Origin: Moniliella sp. 'wahieum'
Taxonomy: Eukaryota > Basidiomycota > Moniliellomycetes > Moniliellales > Moniliellaceae
NCBI GenBank assembly: GCA_003971905.1
Contig: RSEE01000062.1
Span: forward strand, 337,695-401,694
Direction of reading: 5' to 3'
DNA: 64,000 nt
Shown: piece by piece, positions 16,777 to 51,816 of the stretch
Layout: every line of letters begins with the position of its first letter
How positions within the stretch are numbered: the stretch's first letter is position 1
Notes under the pieces: generated by a model
Databases searched by the model: none
What the model saw: the letters and a program-made list of their open reading frames with translations, nothing else
Told to the model about the DNA's origin: nothing
Position numbers and translations under genes: made by a program

Positions 16777-16870
16777 TGCTTCAAAGGGGAATCGAACCCC
16801 TGTCACATCGACGCCTCACAGGCGCGGGGCCATCTGGCAACGATGTAGTATACCACTAACCCATTGAAGC
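16777..16870 (-). tRNA. tRNA-Gly(GCC) with intron
   Basis: Minus strand. The acceptor GCTTCAA (16864-16870) pairs with TTGAAGC (16778-16784) and 16777 is the discriminator. The D arm is GGTTAGTGGTATAC and the T arm AGGGGTTCGATTCCCCT. The anticodon stem CATCG/CGATG closes a loop with GCC (16836-16838). A 23-base intron (16812-16834) follows position 37. Its 5' end faces the LTR element. Confidence 0.9.
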
Positions 16871-16919: not shown

Positions 16920-16924
16920 AGCCC
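16920..16924. repeat. Target-site duplication, left copy
   Basis: AGCCC immediately left of the left LTR, matching AGCCC at 21625-21629 on the far side. A 5-base duplication is usual for LTR retrotransposon integrases. Confidence 0.85.
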
Positions 16925-17275
16925 TGCTAGAGTGCGACTTGGGAGCACTCGCGATCCTATGGATCGGCTGCAAAGCAGCCTTCAGACAAGGCGTGAAGGC
17001 AAAGTGGTGAGCCACAAGTCTTCAAGCAACGTCTCATTGTGAGGAGCAACAGGTCAAGAAAGGAAGCAGAGGCGTACCTTCAGACAAGGCGTGAAGGCAA
17101 AGTGGTGAGCCACAAGTCTTCAAGCAACGTCTGAAGGGAAGGAGAAAGGAGAGAGAGAAGGGAGATGGAGCGAGCAGGGCGCGCGCGGCCTGAGCGGAAC
17201 GCTTCCGCTCGGCTAGGCGAGCGTCACCGATCCATTGAGGGCCGTGCAGGAGAACCCTAGCAGTACCCTCTAGCA
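16925..17275 (-). repeat. Left LTR (3' LTR), 351 bases with internal duplication
   Basis: Same sequence as the right LTR except for about 100 extra bases. A block of about 55 bases (TTCAGACAAGGCGTGAAGGC onward) occurs twice, at about 16980-17035 and 17080-17133, separated by about 43 bases. Otherwise only a few small differences separate the two LTRs. Confidence 0.9.
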
Positions 17276-17828
17276 GCCCCCCTCGGTGAGCTCGCCAGAC
17301 CACAGGTGGTGGTGGTCCTCGGCCAAGGGCCAAGGCATGGATGAAAGAAGAAAGGATGTCTCCAACGCCTCTGGTCAAAAGTGAAAGGAAAACATAATTG
17401 GCAAGCGATGTTGCCAAGTCAAGGAAGAAACAGTATATTCAACGCATGGAGGTAAGGAGGAAGCGTAGAAAGTCACAGAGGTCAATTCAACTTGGAAGTA
17501 TAAACAACATGTGCCAAGTCGAAACAGGATGTTCAGCGTATGAGGGGGAAGCGTAGAAAGTCATAGAGGTCAATTCAACTTGGAGGTAGAAACAACATGT
17601 TCCAAGTCGAAAGAGTATGCTGAACGTGTGCAGGTAAGGAAGTTTCGAAAGTCATAGAGGTCGATTCAACTTGGAGATATAGACAATATGCCAAGTCGAA
17701 CCGAAGCCAAAGTCGAACAGTAAAAACGTAGAGTTGGAGGTCGAGTAGAGCCATAGAAGGCAATTCAACTGGAAAGAAACCAACAAGTCAAAGTGGCACA
17801 GTCATGAAAAAGAGAAAAAGGACCAAAT
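17276..17828 (-). repeat. Imperfect ~90-base repeats beside the 3' LTR
   Basis: At least four diverged copies of a unit containing GTCAATTCAACTTGGA and CAAGTCGAA start at about 17481, 17569, 17660 and 17759. They contain stops in all minus frames, so this part looks non-coding, unlike the repeats that follow. The extreme left holds the candidate polypurine tract. Confidence 0.65.
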
Positions 17829-20800
17829 TCAGGACAGAAAAAGGATGACGACTGGTTCAACCGCCACGCGGACCAGCGTCAACGATGGTTCGAAAGTACC
17901 TTGTAGGTGATCAGTACACTTCGCAAGCAGCACCGCTGGCAAAGGAGCGACCAAAGTTTCCGGGCCCGGGTCAGGGATGAAAGTGCAACGGCTGCTCATG
18001 TAGCGTACACTAGAGACAGTGCCTCCCGTCTTGAGACAGCCAAAGAAACTCCCACTTGGGCCAGAAAGGAAACCATAGCCGCCCATGCAGCCCACATAGT
18101 CAACAGCACCGCCAATCTTGGAACGGTCAAGGTACCCCGCGCCCGGGTCAGGTAGGAAACGGCCACAACCATTAGTGTAACCTAAACCGTCAACAGCGCC
18201 ACTGCTCTTGAGACGGTCGAAGTATCCCCCGCCCGGGTCAAGTAGAAAATTGCCACAACCATTAGTGTAGCCGAAACTGTCAACAGTAGCACTGGTCTTG
18301 GGACGGTCAAAGTACCCCCCGCCCGTGTCAAAGAGGAAACTGCCACCGCTGTCAGTGTGGCCCAAACTGTCAACAGCAGCACTGGTCTTGGGACGGCCAA
18401 AGTACCCCCCGCCCAGGTCAGATAGGAAAGTGCCACCGCTGCCCGTGTAGCCCAAAACATAAACGGTGCCCCCGATCGTCGATCGGTCAAAGTACCACTG
18501 GTCCGAGTCAGGTAAGAAACTGCCACAGCCGCCCGTGTAGCCCAAATCGTAAACGGTGCCTGTGGTCTTGGAACGATCAAAATACCACCCGCCCGGGTCA
18601 GATAGGAAGCCGTCAGAACCCCCATCATGTTGGGTGCAATGGGAGAGCGGGACGTTAAAGCAGAGCACACAAGAGGACCAACGAGTCCGCACATTACCTC
18701 CCTAGCTAACCAAGTAAGAAGGCAGCTAGGGTGGCTTGCGTCGGTGTTGGGCCCCGGCCAAGAGACCTCAGGTCAGTATCAATATTCTCTCCCGACATGA
18801 CAATGTGTGCCTGAGGGTCGGTGCCGTGCCCGTGCTTAATTTGGAACAGGCAGGCCTGCCAACACATGGTGAGTATCGCTGAAAAGGGTGGGTGGGAGGG
18901 AACAGTAAGGCAAGGTGGTCCGGGCGCGTAAATGCATGTGCGGAAGGACGAGGGCAGCCCCCCTTTTTCCCGCATCCCGTCGATGGCCGCAAGCTCTGAC
19001 ACAGCGGCAATCGCCTTCCCTGCGTATGGTGCTAGGCCGACCGTGCAAAGCTTGTCCGCAAGCTCGGCGACCGTTAATTCTCCATGTCCAGCCGCCAGGT
19101 CGACACCGCCACACGCCATCGGCCCCCCTTGATCGGACGCTCGGCCAATAGCAGCGCGCGACATCGGTCCCCCTTGGTCAGGCACCAGGCCGACACGTCC
19201 ACACGCCATCGACCCCCCTTTGTCAGGCGCCTGGCCAATAGCACCACACGCTATCGGTCCCCCTTTGTCAGGCGCTTGGCCAATGGCACCACACGCGGTC
19301 GGCCCCCCTTTGTCGGGCGCCTGGCCAATAGCACCACACGCTATCGGCCCCCCTTGGTCGGGTGCCTGATGGACGTCAATGGGAACCGGGCCACCAAGCG
19401 CCTGGTCGGACGCCATGCCATCCACCGGCCCCCCTTTGTCAGACGCTAGGCCAACCCACCGGCCCCCCTTGATAGGGTGCCAAGCCAACCACCGGCCCCC
19501 TTCATCGGGTACCGGGCCAGCCATCGTTTCCTCTTCATCGGGTGAAGAGGCACCAAGCGCCATCGGCCCCCCTTGGCCAGGCGCTGGACTTTAACAGGTA
19601 CCAGGCCCGAGCGCCTGATCAGGTGCCATGCCATCCACCGTCCCACTGTATCACGCCAGGCCAGCCACCGGCCCCCTTGATCGGGTGCCAAGTCAGCCAT
19701 TGTTTCCCCTTCATCGGTGCAAAGGACCGAGCGCAATCAGCCCCCCTTTACCAGGCGCCGGGACTGCAACGGGTACCGGGCCACCAAGCGCCTGACGGTG
19801 TCTGATCCTGAGCCACGATAGCAACTGACATGGACCTGGGGGAATGCACCTCCCGTGACGCATAGTCACCACCCGCTGGGGGTAAGTCCGGGCCGACAGA
19901 TGTCATCGCAGCCACAGGATCCGGTTCGGCGATAGCAGCTGGCGTGGACCTGGGGGAATGCACCTCCCGTGACGCATAGTCACCACCCGCTGGGGGTAAG
20001 CCCGGGCCGACAGATGCCATCGCAGCCACAGGATCCGGCTTGGCGATAGCAGCTGGCGTGGACCTGGGGGAATGCACCTCCCGTGACACATAGTCACCAC
20101 CCGCTGGGGGTAAGTCCGGGCCGACAGATGCCATCGCAGCCACAGGATCCGGTTCGGCGATAGCAGCTGGCGTGGACCTGGGCGAATGCACCCCCAGTGA
20201 CGCATGGTCACCACCCGCTGGGGGTAAATCCGGACCAACAGGTGCCATCGCAACCACCGCTGGAACCTGAGCAGCAACAGCAACTGACCCCTCCTGGAGC
20301 GAATGCGCCCCCGATCGTATGGACTTGATCCGCCGGTCGTGAATCAGGGTCGACGGATTCCATCGGAGCCACAAGGTCATGAACCACGACAGCAGGTGAC
20401 ATGGACTCGGAGGAATGTGCTTCCGACGGTATACAGGCACCATGTTCTGTGAGTAAGTCCGGGCCAACAGACGGCATTGCTGCAACAGGGTCGTACCCAA
20501 CAGCAGTTAACTCAGCCCCGGACTTGGGACTAGCGGAATGCATCGTCAGTAAATCAGGACCAACGCGTGGCATCTTGCCCAGAGGCTCATGGGCGACAGC
20601 AACTGGCTCACACGCGGGCGAAGCAAGGTGTTCCGCTGGCTCGCTGGCACCACGAGCCGGGAAAGGCTCGTCAACGAGTGGTGCTGCAACCAGAGGTTTA
20701 CCCTCTCCACCAGTGCAATCACGAGAGCAATCCACATCCTTGGGGCCAGGCACGACCACACCTTGGGGCTCTCTGATACAGTCCGCTGGGTCGAGGAGCA

Positions 20801-21369
20801 TGTCACGCATGGCACGACGCTTCAGATCGACATGGTGTTTGGAAGCCTGATTGCCCTCGTACAGTTTCCAAGCATTACGCACTGCCTTGAGATGGCGAAG
20901 ATTGCCTTCTGCAAGTCCTCAAAGGTGGAGAAGCGATGAGACTTGGTATAAAAGACGTAGGCAACATAGAAGTCGGTCGGTGTGAGCAAGAAGTTTTCGC
21001 CACCATGGCCTTTATTGTAGTCGGTAATGATATCAGCCACAATAGAGTCCTTGTCTGCCACTGCAGAACCAGGGAGCGGGGAGGCGATGCCACTCATCGG
21101 CATACCCAGTGGCGAATGGTAGGAATGACTTCCAGGATGAACTTGGCAGCGACGTCCTCGTCAACGTCCGAAAGAACGACGTTCAGTTGAGCCCAAGCAT
21201 AAGTCGTGCCCTTGATGCGAAAAGCCGGCCACTTCGCTGTCGTGCCAGGAGCTATCCCGACTTGGGAGTTGGGGTCAAACTCGCCACGACGAACATACGC
21301 TTCCACAATGTCGCGAGGCGAGGAAACCGGGTGCGCAGAATGCGCAGAGGCAGAAGATAAGGGCGACAT
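17829..21369 (-). CDS. Repeat-rich protein of the LTR element (gag-position, unknown)
   Basis: Minus-strand coding runs from ATG 21369, five bases from the LTR edge, to about 18706 or 17829. The first 180 or so residues look like a normal folded domain (VEAYVRRGEFDPNSQ, KWPAFRIKGTTYAWAQLN, DFYVAYVFYTKSHRFST), then a helical stretch (NAWKLYEGNQASKHH). Next come three tandem-repeat classes: 38-residue units (DLPPAGGDYASREVHSP) at about 19810-20230, 15-residue units (GQAPDKGGPIACGAI) at about 19090-19370, and 30-residue units (DPGGGYFDRLKSSGAV) at about 17940-18640. A non-repeat segment with AELADKLCTVGLAPYAGKA separates the last two. The frame breaks at least five times, as in neighbouring host genes, and a stop at 18706 may divide it. 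No known family recognised; its place matches gag. Confidence 0.5.
17940..18645 (-). repeat. 90-base tandem repeats, about 8 copies
   Basis: The unit is exactly 90 bases where measured and encodes a 30-residue Gly/Asp/Tyr-rich repeat on the minus strand (GGGYFDR, GYTNGCG). The copies are degenerate but stay in one frame through about 280 codons. Confidence 0.85.
19085..19375 (-). repeat. 45-base tandem repeats, about 6-7 copies
   Basis: The unit is 45 bases and encodes GQAPDKGGPIACGAI on the minus strand. Less regular related units with the core CCGGCCCCC continue to about 19760. Confidence 0.85.
19805..20260 (-). repeat. 114-base tandem repeats, 4 copies
   Basis: The unit is 114 bases and encodes a 38-residue repeat with DPVAAMASVGPDLPPAGGDY on the minus strand. 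Related single units (VGPDLLT) continue to about 20570. Confidence 0.88.
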
Positions 21370-21373
21370 AACC

Positions 21374-21624
21374 TGCTAGAGTGCGACTTGGGAGCACTCG
21401 CGATCCTATGGATCGGCTGCAAAGCAGCTTCAGACAAGGCGTGAAGGCAAAGTGGTGAGCCACAAGTCTTCAAGCAACGTCTGAAGGGAAGGAGAAAGGA
21501 GAGAGAGAAGGGAGATGGAGCGAGCAGGGCGCGCGCGGCCTGCGAGCGGAACGCTTCCGCTCGGCTAGGCGAGCGTCACCCCATTGAGGGCCGTGCAGGA
21601 GAACCCTAGCAGTACCCTCTAGCA
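21374..21624 (-). repeat. Right LTR (5' LTR), 251 bases
   Basis: Begins TGCTAGAGTGCGAC and ends ACCCTCTAGCA, with a perfect 8-base terminal inverted repeat. It carries an internal GAGTGC/GCACTC hairpin. Apart from the missing internal duplication it is almost identical to 16925-17275. Confidence 0.92.
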
Positions 21625-21629
21625 AGCCC
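21625..21629. repeat. Target-site duplication, right copy
   Basis: AGCCC immediately right of the right LTR, identical to 16920-16924. Confidence 0.85.
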
Positions 21630-46298: not shown

Positions 46299-49200
46299 AT
46301 GCCCCCTGCCCCGGCCTCCTCCGCACGCGGGGTGGCTCCCCTCGCCGTTGGGATCGACAGCCTCAACAACAGCAGCTCTTCCAGCCTAACGCACGATGGG
46401 CCTGCCACGGAGCTCCTTGCTCATCATCCGTCTGCAAGCCCCCCTCCTATCTCAGCGCCGCACATCGGCATGCAGCATATCCTACGACCTTGACACCAGT
46501 GCTGGCCGCCCTTCTCCCTCGCTGGACACCAAGCATCGCGGTAGCTACACGCCCAGTGGCTACAGTGTGCCTGATCCCACCCAGGCAACCTATCCCGACC
46601 CAAACAGCGCCTCCGCTCCCCCTTTGCGTCAGCGCGATCCTTACCCGGCATGGACCGTCGAACATCAAATCCCCCTATCCAAGGAAGAGATTGAAGACAT
46701 TTTCATCGACCTCACTGCCAAGTTCGGCTTCCAGAAGGACTCGATGCGTAACATGTACGACCACCTGATGATTCTACTCGACAGCCGCGCCAGCCGAATG
46801 ACGCCCACAATGGCGTTGGCCACCCTCACGCCGACTACATTGGAGGCGAGAACAGCAACTACCGCAAGTGGTACTTTGCCGCCCAGCTGGACCTCGATGA
46901 CGCCATTGGACGAGTCCAGAATCCCGGTATCGCGACACGGGCCGCCTCCCTACACCGTCGGCCGTCGGCCGCCCGCTCCCCTCATGGCGCGGACGACAAG
47001 ACAATCAGCCGGACAAGCGCATTGATTAACGCCAACGTCAAGTCGCTCCAGAGTGCCCAAATTCGGTGGCGCGACGCGATGAACCGAATGAACGATTACG
47101 ATCGTCTCCGTCAAATCGCACTTTGGTTACTCTGCTGGGGGGAAGCGGGGCAGGTGCGCCTGACACCCGAGTGTCTCTGCTTCATTTTCAAGTGTGCCGA
47201 TGACTACTATCGCTCAGAGGAATGCCAAAACCGAATGGACCCAGTGCCCGAGGGCCTGTATCTTCGGGCTGTGATCCGCCCAATCTACCGGTACCTGCGC
47301 GACCAGATCTTCGAAATTGTGGACGGCAAGTTTGTCAAGCGGGAACGCGATCATGAGAACATCGTGGGCTATGACGATGTCAACCAGCTCTTTTGGTACC
47401 CGCACGGCATCTCTCGTATCGTTCTTCAAGATGGGACTCGACTCGTGGACACACTCCAGCCCAGCGCTTCCTGAAGTTGGACAAGGTTCAATGGCACAAG
47501 GTGTTTGTCAAGACGTACAAAGAAAAGCGCACCATCGTTCATCTCCTTGTCAACTTCAACCGCATTTGGATCCTCCATATTTCTTCCTTTTGGTACTTTG
47601 TTGCGTAAGTTCTGCTGTGTGGGGTTGTTAGGAAAGAATGATGCTGTACTGACTTTCAACCCACCGGCAGGCCCAATGCCCCAAAGATTTACACTCAGGA
47701 TACTCCCACAATTGAGCAGAAGCTGTCGGCGGCAGCCCTAGGTGGCTCGGTATCGGCATTCATTATGATTCTCGCCACCCTGGCAGAGGCATCGTACCTC
47801 AACGCAACATGGAACAACCTGATGCTCCTCGTTCGCCGGCTCATTTTTCTTGGGGTGGCTTTGGGCTTATCGATGTGCCCTGTGATCTACGTTTTTGGAT
47901 GGAACGCGCATGGTACACCCTCACAGATTGTAGCTTACGTCGGAATTGCCTTTTCAGCATGTGTTACCATCATTTTTGGTATCATCCCAAGCGGCCGCAT
48001 GTTCGGCGATCGGGTGGCAAGCAGCTCTCGCAAGTACCTTGCCAGCCAGACGTTCACTGCCTCATACCCACCGCTGCCGTGGAAGCGGCGCGTGGTCAGC
48101 TGTGCATTATGGTTCCTCGTCTTTGGGTGCAAATTGACGGAATCCTATTTTTTCCTCACCCTCTCCTTCCGTGACCCGCTGGCCATCATGGTCAACATGA
48201 CGGTGCAAAGCTGCGAGGACAAGTACTTCGGTCACAACCTGTGTAAAAACCAACCGGCGTTCACTTTGGCCGCCATGTTCGTCCTCGATCTGTGCCTCTT
48301 CTTCCTCGACTCATACCTGTGGTACGTCATTTGGAACACAACATTCAGCATTGGATGGGCGTTCTTCGATCCGGCATTTCGATTTGGACCCCTTGGAGAG
48401 ATATGTTCCAGCGTGTGCCCAGACGGATCTACGCCAAGCTCCTGGCCACTGATGATATGGACTTTAAATACAAACCGAAGGTGCTCGTGTCCCAGGTGTG
48501 GAATGCGATCGTCATTGCCATGTATCGCGAGCATCTACTCTCCATTGACCATGTTCAAAACTTGCTCTACCACAAGTTGCCTCGGCCGACGGAACCAAAC
48601 GCATCCTACGGGCCCCGCTGTTCTTCATCATGCAAGGAAAAGGCGGAGGTTCACGGTCTCAGTTTTTTTCCTGGTGGTTCGGAGGCAGAGCGGCGGATCA
48701 GCTCTTTGCTCAGTCTTTAACGATGGACTTACCGGAGACGCTTCCGGTAGACGCCATGCCTACATTTACAGTTCTAACACCCCATTACTCAGAGAAGATC
48801 CTACTCTCGCTCCGCGAGATTATCCGGGAAGAAGACCAGAACACACGTGTGACGCTTCATCAGTACCTTAAGGAGCTCCACCCTCTTGAGTGGAAAAACT
48901 TTGTCAAGGATACTCGTATTTTAGCCGAAGAAACCGAGGGGAAAACGCCCGCGCCCTATGCCCATCAGGAGAGAATACAAGCCAACAGAGCAAAATGGAT
49001 GACCTTCCCTTCAACTTCATCGGATTCAAATCCTCGTCGCCTGAGTACCCACTCCGCACCCGCATCTGGGCCTCCCTTCGAGCCCAGACTCTGTATCGCA
49101 CTGTCTCGGGCTTCATGAACTATTCCAAAGCTATAAAACTGTTGTACCGTGTGGAAAACCCCGAGGTGGTCCAACTGTTGGGGGGCAACCCGGAAAAGCT

Positions 49201-51816
49201 TGAGCGGGAGCTGGAGCGAATGGCCAGGCGCAAGTTCAAGTATGTTGTCTCCATGCAGCGCTACGCCAAGTTCAACAAGGAAGAGCACGAAAATTCAGAG
49301 TTCCTCCTTCGCGCCTACCCCGACCTCCAAATTGCCTTTCTCGAAGAGCAGCCTCCCCGGAAGCAGGGAGGCGAGTCCCACTGGTTCTCGGTCTTGGTCG
49401 ATGGGCATTCGGAAATCCTTCCCAATGGAAAGCGCCGGGCTAAGTTCCGCATTGAGCTGCCGGGAAATCCAATTCTGGGCGATGGAAAGTCAGACAACCA
49501 AAACCACGCGCGGTGGTATTTATCCGGGGTGAGTATGTGCAACTCATTGACGCCAATCAAGACAACTACCTCGAGGAGTGCCTCAAGATCCGCTCTGTTC
49601 TCGGCGAGTTTGAATCATTCACCGTCTCAAACGCCAATCCCTATGGGAAGAACTATGACGAGCATAGCAAGGCTCCAGTGGCAATCGTCGGTGCCGGGTA
49701 CATCTTCTCGGAGAATATTGGCATCTTGGGGGATAATGCGGCCGGAAAGGAACAGACCTTTGGGACGCTCAACGGTCGTGGCCTAGCCAACATTGGCGGC
49801 AAACTCCACTATGGTCACCCGGATTTTCTCAGTGCCATCTTTATGAACACGCGTGGGGGCGTATCCAAGGCACAAAGGGACTCCATCTCAACGAGGATAT
49901 CTACGCTGGGATTATGGCCTTTTCACGAGGAGGTAGGATCAAGCACTGCGAATACTATCAGTGCGGCAAGGGACGCGACCTTGGGTTCGGTACAATCCTC
50001 AACTTCACCACCAAACTTGGCAACGGAATGGGGGAACAACTGCTGTCGCGCGACTACTACTATTTGGGTACCCAATTGCCGATGGACCGGTTCCTCACGT
50101 TTTACTACGGACATCCTGGGTTTCAACTGAACAACGTGATCGTCATCATGTCGGTGCAGCTCTTTATGTGACACTTATGTTGTCGGGACCTCACTCGTCG
50201 CTGCAAGTATGTGAGACGACCCACGACAATTTCATCGTTGGCACTTCGGGATGCTACTACCTTAACCCGGTTTCTCTTGGTTGAAACGAACGGTCATTTC
50301 GATTTTCTCGTGTTTGCCATTTCCTTTCTTCCTTTGTTCATGCAGGAGCTGTGCGAGCGGGGCCCATATCGGCCGTCTTCCGCCTCGCCCGTCAGATCCT
50401 CTCGCTTAGTCCCGTGTTTGAAGTGTTTAGCACCATGATTTACGCCAACTCGCTCCTGTCCAACCTGACCTTCGGGGGCGCACGGTACATTGCCACGGGT
50501 CGTGGGTTTGCCACCAGTCGGCAGAGTTTTGCTCTGCTCTTCAGCCGCTTTGCTGGTCCGTCGATCTACTCCGGATCGAGGTTGGTGCTTCTGCTTCTGT
50601 ATGCAACTTTACCGTGTGGTTTTACACTTGATCTATTTTTGGATCACATGCGTCTCGCTCTGTGTCGCTCCCTTCCTCTTCAATCCCCACCAGTTTTCCT
50701 TCCCCGACTTTGTGGTGGACTATCGCGAATTTCTGCAATGGATGTCGCGCGGCAACTCCCGCTCACACGCAAACTCATGGGTTGGCTACTGCCGTCTGAG
50801 CGACCGAACCAAGGTGACGGGGTACAAAAAGAAGAGGCTTGGACACCCTTCGGAAAACTGGCTGGCGACGTACCCCGAGCTGGGTGGAGGACGATCATCT
50901 TTGCCGAGTGCCTCTCGCCAATTGCGATGGCTGTCATCTTTGTGTGTCTTGTATGCGTTTGTCAAGTCATTCATCGTGCTTCCGACCCACCCGGGGGGCC
51001 ATTGTGCGGATCGCTATTCTTTCACTTGGTCCCATTGCGCTCAACGCGGCAGTGCTTTTGATCTGTTTTGCCATTTCCATCCTCTTTGGCACTGCACTGA
51101 GCCAGCGCTGTGGACGGGTTGGGTCCATCATGGCCATCATTGCCCATCTATTTGCAGTGCTGGGAATGATTGGTGCGTTTGAGCTGCTGTTGGTGATTGA
51201 ACGCTGGTCGCCTTCGCATGCCCTCCTGGGCCTAATTGCTGTCATGGCCATTCAACGGCCATAATGAAGGCCCTCGTCGCCCGTTCTCTCCCTGAGATGA
51301 AACACGAAACCAACAGTGCATGGTGGACAGGGCGCTGGTACGGACGCGGTCTCGGGTCTCATGCCTTCTCCCAGCCACTTCGTGAGTTTGTGGTCAAAAT
51401 CATTGAGATGAGTTACTTTTCGGCCGACTTTGTCTTGTACGCAGCCCCCCCCCCCTGCTTTTTGTCACAAAGTACTAACTGTTGAGTAATGCCAAACACC
51501 CTCATTTTTGTCCTTCTTCCCTCCGAATTTACAACTTGCCGCAGGTGCCACATTATCCTTTACGTATTGGCTATTCCAATGCTTCTGCCTTTCATGGACC
51601 GCTTCCATTCAATGATTGCTTTTCTGGCTTCGTCCGAGCCGGGACCTGCACAAGCCCATTTTCTCTCTTCGACAGAGAAAGGAGCGTCGCTGGATTCTGT
51701 TGCGCTACGGGCTGCTGTTCTTCTTGGGCTATGCTTGCTTTGCCGCCCTGATTGCCGTCCCTATCACCTTCCCCCACTGGCTCGTGTTTGATTGTGGCTC
51801 AGTATGCACGCTCTGA
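46299..51816 (+). CDS. FKS1: 1,3-beta-glucan synthase catalytic subunit (FKS, GT48)
   Basis: Plasma-membrane enzyme making the main wall glucan from UDP-glucose; target of echinocandins. The start at 46299 ([11 protein letters not shown]) precedes the FKS1 N-terminal domain ([20 protein letters not shown], 46670; [15 protein letters not shown], 47115). A first set of membrane segments lies at 47580-48400. The cytosolic GT48 region spans 48650-50100: [20 protein letters not shown] (48750), [10 protein letters not shown]-type segment, [20 protein letters not shown] (49095), [16 protein letters not shown] (49525), [20 protein letters not shown] (49925) and [11 protein letters not shown] (50100). 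A second membrane set follows to GSVCTL at 51816. Length, about 1,800 residues, fits FKS1. An intron is at 47605-47670; one is likely near 51440-51545. At least fifteen single-base frame changes occur. Confidence 0.95.
47605..47670 (+). other. Intron in glucan synthase
   Basis: GTAAGTTCTG...CACCGGCAG, 66 bases. Splicing joins SSFWYFVA to PNAPKIYTQ, the conserved FKS order. Confidence 0.75.

What the first reader, a model, noticed from the sequence alone, without database searches (positions are those of the whole stretch)
16925..21624. Recent LTR element with a coding interior but no polymerase
Two near-identical direct repeats with perfect TGCTAGAG/CTCTAGCA termini and a 5-base AGCCC duplication define a 4.7-kb insertion. 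I cannot find any reverse transcriptase, integrase, protease or zinc knuckle in it. The sequence shows a complete, young element; that it is mobilised in trans is inference.
Basis: partly seen in the sequence, partly recalled or inferred. Interest (0 to 1): 0.72.

Follow-up and report, generated by a model that had tools for sequence, protein, structure and literature searches.

The report
Helper-dependent jumping element in a fungus
A 4.7-kb jumping element, in what is probably a fungal genome, has no genes for copying itself but keeps the two ends and the first part of the capsid gene of a fuller relative in the same genome, which probably copied it; it is a known kind of helper-dependent element with an unusual repeat-filled middle.

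Summary
In detail: 16925-21624 is a complete, young LTR insertion with an AGCCC duplication, and a paralogous stretch of the same genome has the empty site. Corrections: the LTRs are 351 and 251 bp (99-bp internal repeat unit; 0 substitutions in 249 aligned bases) and the coding strand is minus. No protease, integrase, RT or zinc knuckle was found.

A 6.4-kb Ty1/copia family (A; six loci with this RT) shares the primer-site region, about the first 595 interior bases (N-terminal part of Gag), the polypurine tract and about 58 bp of U3. The rest of its LTR differs, so a search for a shared LTR could miss it. Nine copies have the window-type 5' end (N). N is A's two ends around an unrelated, repeat-rich 3.5-kb middle; one N copy has a 797-codon frame from the Gag start into the repeats.

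Leaders of five of nine N copies are mosaics with sharp breaks against A, as expected if the RNAs shared particles (inference). Codon tests show no protein-level constraint on N.

Closest kinds: LARD and TR-GAG; it fits neither fully. Modest novelty. Movement was not observed.

The parts
16920..16924 (.). target-site duplication AGCCC, left copy
   Evidence: single copy in the empty paralog on C17
16925..17275 (-). 3' LTR in coding sense, 351 bp, with an internal direct repeat (units at 16980 and 17078)
17276..17310 (-). polypurine tract (GAGGGGGGC directly before the LTR) and neighbouring stretch shared with the autonomous family
   Evidence: 36 bp at 94.4% to L039; sequence
17276..20780 (-). 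middle without likeness to the autonomous family; tandem repeats of about 90, 45 and 114 bp and a ~90-bp repeat near the 3' end; ORF pieces 17829-18692, 18706-19563, 19748-20500, 20208-20882
20781..21373 (-). primer-site region GGTTATG, leader and N-terminal Gag codons 1-197, in three frames in this copy (ORF pieces 21094-21369, 20822-21103, start of 20208-20882)
21374..21624 (-). 5' LTR in coding sense, 251 bp, lacking one unit of the internal repeat
21625..21629 (.). target-site duplication AGCCC, right copy

Best explanation
A non-autonomous Ty1/copia-type LTR retrotransposon, coded on the minus strand. It keeps the ends of an autonomous family of the same genome (primer-site region and leader, polypurine tract, LTR tips) around a middle of other origin. 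Shown: the anatomy, the shared ends, the empty site, the relative with Gag, protease, integrase and RT parts, the mosaic leaders. Inferred: transcription from the 5' LTR, packaging of the RNA in particles of the autonomous family through the shared leader, reverse transcription and integration by that family's enzymes. The retained Gag fragment is more likely kept as RNA (primer site plus packaging signal) than as protein.
For: Empty site and 5-bp duplications. Nine places match the first 973 interior bases over at least 926, eight others only over about 570-592. One of the eight, L037, is a 6.4-kb element with 98.8% identical LTRs; another, L039, has CCHC Gag, Pol_BBD, rve, SH3_retrovirus and RVT_2 in this order. 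Interior and L039 match only at the two ends, 595 bp at 91.6% and 36 bp at 94.4%. LTR tips and polypurine tract shared. Leader mosaics: 0 of 20,000 permutations reached the observed break in each of 7 tests. No excess of synonymous change in N: 31 synonymous, 97 non-synonymous, expected share 0.29.
Against: Movement, transcript and particle were not observed. Both autonomous copies read in full (L037, L039) have pol in several frames as assembled; whether an unbroken copy exists was not examined. Most of the LTR differs between N and A. The host's initiator tRNA was not found, so the primer site is unproven. The leader shows no unusual RNA fold (z -1.27). Mosaics could come from gene conversion, and parents and breakpoints were chosen after looking.
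Confidence: 0.8

Rival explanations
1. N is moved by another copia family of the genome; the shared ends with A reflect common descent only.
For: The A RT query found 134 matches in the genome (150 of 155 candidates scored), most of them to other, more distant families with long open frames. Both A copies read in full have broken pol as assembled.
Against: Leaders of N copies exchange with A. The leader search found no other family (17 places), and the junction pattern found 16 places, all N or of the 592-bp class.
Confidence: 0.12
2. N encodes a functional chimeric protein, the Gag N-terminal domain fused to a long repeat tail, that enters or disturbs particles of the autonomous family; the frame itself is what is kept.
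For: Frames of 797 codons (L015) and 531 codons (L038) run from the Gag start into the repeats; repeat units of 114, 45 and 90 bp are multiples of three.
Against: No excess of synonymous change over the frame (31 against 97; expected share 0.29; p = 0.90). The frame is broken in the window and several other copies as assembled. No Pfam or PDB match.
Confidence: 0.07
3. A simple internal deletion product or decayed autonomous element.
For: Shared 5' and 3' ends, as a deletion derivative would have.
Against: The 3.5-kb middle has no blastn match to L039 at E 1e-3, recurs as a unit in nine copies and in more diverged relatives.
Confidence: 0.04
4. Assembly artefact or false join.
For: Short indels outnumber substitutions 13 to 1 over 7 LTR pairs, so the assembly probably holds indel errors.
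Against: Empty site with one AGCCC; eight complete copies at distinct sites, 7 with their own 5-bp duplication.
Confidence: 0.01

Closest known systems
LARD (large retrotransposon derivative)
   Same: Two LTRs, primer-site region and polypurine tract, over 4 kb, no pol, an interior unlike a gag-pol gene set; LARDs are reported in some Boletales genomes (PMC5689174, passages).
   Different: LARDs are described as non-coding (PMC5689174 passage); here the 5' end is N-terminal Gag and long frames stand in some copies.
TR-GAG
   Same: A pol-less LTR element that carries gag sequence and has a relative with the full gene set; TR-GAG transposition was reported in Arabidopsis (PMC8704663, passages).
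   Different: TR-GAG has a single ORF for the Gag protein; here only the N-terminal ~197 codons are left, without the knuckle.
The autonomous Ty1/copia family A of the same genome (L037, L039)
   Same: Primer-site region, leader, N-terminal Gag, polypurine tract, U3 start, LTR tips.
   Different: It has the rest of Gag and pol; most of the LTR and the whole middle differ.

Membership tests
LTR retrotransposon | direct LTRs with TG...CA tips, target-site duplication, primer site and polypurine tract next to the LTRs | tested here: met
   tRNA partner of the primer site not identified
LARD | longer than 4 kb and without pol | tested here: met
   4,700 bp; length limit from PMC6696364 passage
LARD | non-coding interior | tested here: inconclusive
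   Gag codons 1-197 present and frames of 797 and 531 codons in two copies, but no codon-level constraint
TR-GAG | single ORF for the whole Gag protein | tested here: not met
   only Gag residues 1-197 of 645 match, no CCHC
Ty1/copia (the relative A) | order protease, integrase, RT with RVT_2 | tested here: met
   L039: Pol_BBD/Asp_protease_2 (the latter below its cut-off), rve, SH3_retrovirus, RVT_2
Ty1/copia (the window element itself) | copia-type pol | tested here: not met
   no pol; placed near copia by its shared ends only
Half-tRNA priming as in copia and Ty5 | primer site complementary to the host's initiator tRNA anticodon arm | tested here: inconclusive
   GGTTATG fits CAUAACC (tRNA sequence recalled); two typed patterns for the host tRNA found nothing
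Helper-dependent movement | transposition by enzymes supplied in trans | not testable with these tools
   needs RNA, particle or population data

The most novel reading that the evidence does not exclude
N is a retrotransposon parasite that makes its own protein: the N-terminal Gag domain fused to a long repeat tail, which loads N RNA into, or poisons, particles of the autonomous family, while the Gag N-terminal domain of the autonomous family diversifies to escape it.
Probability: 0.07. Interest if true: 0.7.

Novelty: new variant of a known kind. Interest (0 to 1): 0.36.

Why it matters
It gives a likely pair of helper and dependent element in one genome, with the shared parts cut down to roughly those that the replication cycle should need in cis, so candidate packaging and priming signals of a copia element can be read from the comparison. 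The mosaic leaders suggest that both RNAs have met in one particle. It also shows that looking for a partner by whole-LTR likeness can fail when only the ends are shared.

Tried and rejected
tRNA targeting: the window copy lies about 50 bp upstream of a tRNA gene and the L017 copy about 190 bp from one, but 19 of the 20 fetched regions L009-L028 have no Rfam tRNA within 200 bp of the LTR. Not supported as a rule.

Self-priming: no shared stretch of 5 or more bases between the reverse complement of the first 20 leader bases and either LTR. Host initiator tRNA: two patterns found nothing. Leader RNA fold: z -1.27, 26 of 200 shuffles fold at least as well.

Older relatives (L046, L047, about 72%) cover mostly the 3' end and gave no codon test. 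Structure prediction and fold search were not run: the long open frames lie on loci that the tool's stated scope does not name, and the window's own frame is broken. Viral, phage, plasmid and prokaryote collections were not searched. The organism was not identified beyond a probable fungus.

These are mended here (15 exact and one with 2 mismatches; 14 of 14 unread).

Full report
OBSERVATION. The window lies in a 69.5-Mb, 223-contig genome. A 1,3-beta-glucan synthase gene in pieces at 47765-49786 (FKS1_dom2, Glucan_synthase) and a eukaryotic LSU rRNA in L016 point to a fungus (inference). At 16925-21624 stand two LTRs with TGCTAGAG/CTCTAGCA tips between AGCCC repeats. They are 351 and 251 bp, have no substitution over 249 aligned bases, and differ by gaps of 2, 99 and 3 bases. 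The 99-bp gap is one unit of an internal direct repeat; L016 has a similar long/short pair (98 bp).

REALITY OF THE INSERTION. The left flank has an 88% paralog on contig C17. There the left flank and the first 90 bases of the right flank meet with a single AGCCC and no element: an empty site; the likeness ends after those 90 bases. The LTR query gave 40 scored matches of 368 first-look candidates. I read 20 regions and C145. With the window this gave 8 complete copies, 7 of 8 with a perfect 5-bp duplication (C15/L018 has none). Of 12 single LTRs with both ends found in L009-L028, 9 have a perfect 5-bp duplication and are solo LTRs; three more single LTRs had no recognisable end. Over 7 LTR pairs there is 1 substitution in 2,256 compared bases, with 13 indels of 1-3 bases and two of 98-99. 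At the fungal rate of 1.05e-9 used in PMC5689174 (passage) this is about 0.2 million years on average, a rough figure. The excess of short indels suggests remaining assembly errors, so broken frames must be read with care.

ORIENTATION AND ENDS. The coding strand is minus: directly after the right LTR (5' LTR) comes GGTTATGTCGCC, and GAGGGGGGC stands directly before the left LTR (3' LTR). Six window ORFs gave no Pfam family.

THE PARTNER. The first 973 interior bases match 17 places: 9 over at least 926 bases, 8 only over about 570-592. One of the eight, L037 (C42), is a 6.4-kb element with 98.8% identical LTRs. Another, L039 (C59), has a 645-codon frame: an N-terminal stretch without Pfam match, then Gag with a CCHC knuckle; protease/Pol_BBD, integrase, SH3 and RVT_2 pieces follow in this order, which is the Ty1/copia order. 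In L037 and L039 pol lies in several frames as assembled. Six loci carry this RT at 78-100% (C59, C76, C84, C42, C14 twice), and C11 a shorter match at 71%. BLAST aligns the two LTR types only over about 58 bp of U3, at 81-86%; the last bases agree too. The window interior matches L039 at its two ends only: 595 bp (91.6%) and 36 bp (94.4%). The 5' junction pattern occurs in 16 places, 15 exact and one (C3) with 2 mismatches, against 2 for the reversed control: 9 window type (N) and 7 of the other class. So N is A's ends around a foreign middle.

THE MIDDLE. It holds tandem repeats spaced 114, 45 and 90 bp and a further repeat of about 90 bp near the 3' end. Apart from the nine N copies it recurs at 70-89% in eight contigs (C112, C139, C39, C6, C74, C78, C135, C26). 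In L015 the Gag start opens a frame of 797 codons through repeats, in L038 one of 531. Seven other N interiors against L015 as frame show 31 synonymous and 97 non-synonymous distinct changes, expected synonymous share 0.29, p = 0.90 for an excess (gapped and very divergent neighbourhoods left out, C18 not included): no sign of protein-level constraint. The N-terminal Gag part shows none between A_C59 and A_C4 either (15 against 66, expected share 0.263), while the Gag core of the same pair does (31 against 24, p = 1.9e-5). C4 is a degraded copy, so this is a hint only.

MOSAIC LEADERS. Fifteen copies (9 N, 6 A; the second C14 copy and C3 were left out) were aligned over 600 bp. Positions 6-57 differ by 0-3 bases from A_C59 in every copy. 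From 58 to about 301, C36, C15, C71 and the window carry the type of C24a, C24b, C49 and C18 (3 of 39 informative sites of the window match A); from about 311 to 525 the A type (53 of 54); after 528 the N type (0 of 22). C145 is A type up to 525 (91 of 94) and N type after (1 of 31). In each of 7 tests 0 of 20,000 permutations reached the observed break; the parents were chosen after looking. At least two exchanges are needed; the direction is not polarised, one may be between N copies, and gene conversion is not excluded. Template switching in a shared particle is the usual route for LTR elements (recalled).

MECHANISM. N RNA, made from its own LTR, would be packaged by A particles through the shared leader, primed at the shared site, copied by A's RT through the shared polypurine tract and integrated by A's integrase through the shared tips. 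The anatomy is shown; every step of the cycle is inferred. GGTTATG fits the initiator-Met anticodon loop (recalled). That copia uses a half-tRNA is in a passage, and that Ty5 uses the initiator anticodon arm is a title in the reference list, of PMC5371799. The host tRNA was not found.

COMPARISON. LARD (over 4 kb, PMC6696364 passage; called non-coding in PMC5689174, passage) and TR-GAG (whole Gag; PMC8704663, passages) bracket it. It fits neither in full: it carries a Gag fragment without the knuckle. Seven literature searches listed no fungal element that I recognised as having this plan; only listings and passages were seen, and most subscription journals are not held.

Noticed in passing
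window 16777-16870 (-): The tRNA gene next to the insertion, longer than the Rfam model (intron inferred), has at least 38 further near-identical dispersed copies of about 100 bp in the genome (87-95% in most; 40 of 68 candidates scored). ARAGORN did not report it.
   Followed up: partly
L045 (C17:484500-486000): Paralogous copy of the insertion flank, tRNA gene included, without the element.
   Followed up: yes
L039 2353-2943 and L040: The N-terminal Gag part differs more between two copies of the A family than the Gag core and shows no excess of synonymous change, while the core does. Fast divergence or a degraded copy; not settled.
   Followed up: partly
window 17268-17275 and other N copies: The window copy has the U3 tip TGCTAGAG of the A copy L037, where the 24 LTR ends printed for L009-L028 read TGTTAGAG in coding sense.
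   Followed up: partly
C112, C139, C39, C6, C74, C78, C135, C26 of the genome: More diverged or partial relatives of the N middle (70-89%) suggest that the foreign middle has been in the lineage for long.
   Followed up: partly
L016 6019-7680: Part of a eukaryotic LSU rRNA gene lies about 0.9 kb from a complete N copy.
   Followed up: no
LTR pairs of L011, L014, L015, L017, L018 and window: Thirteen indels of 1-3 bases against one substitution over 7 pairs (L016 is the seventh) suggest remaining indel errors in the assembly.
   Followed up: partly
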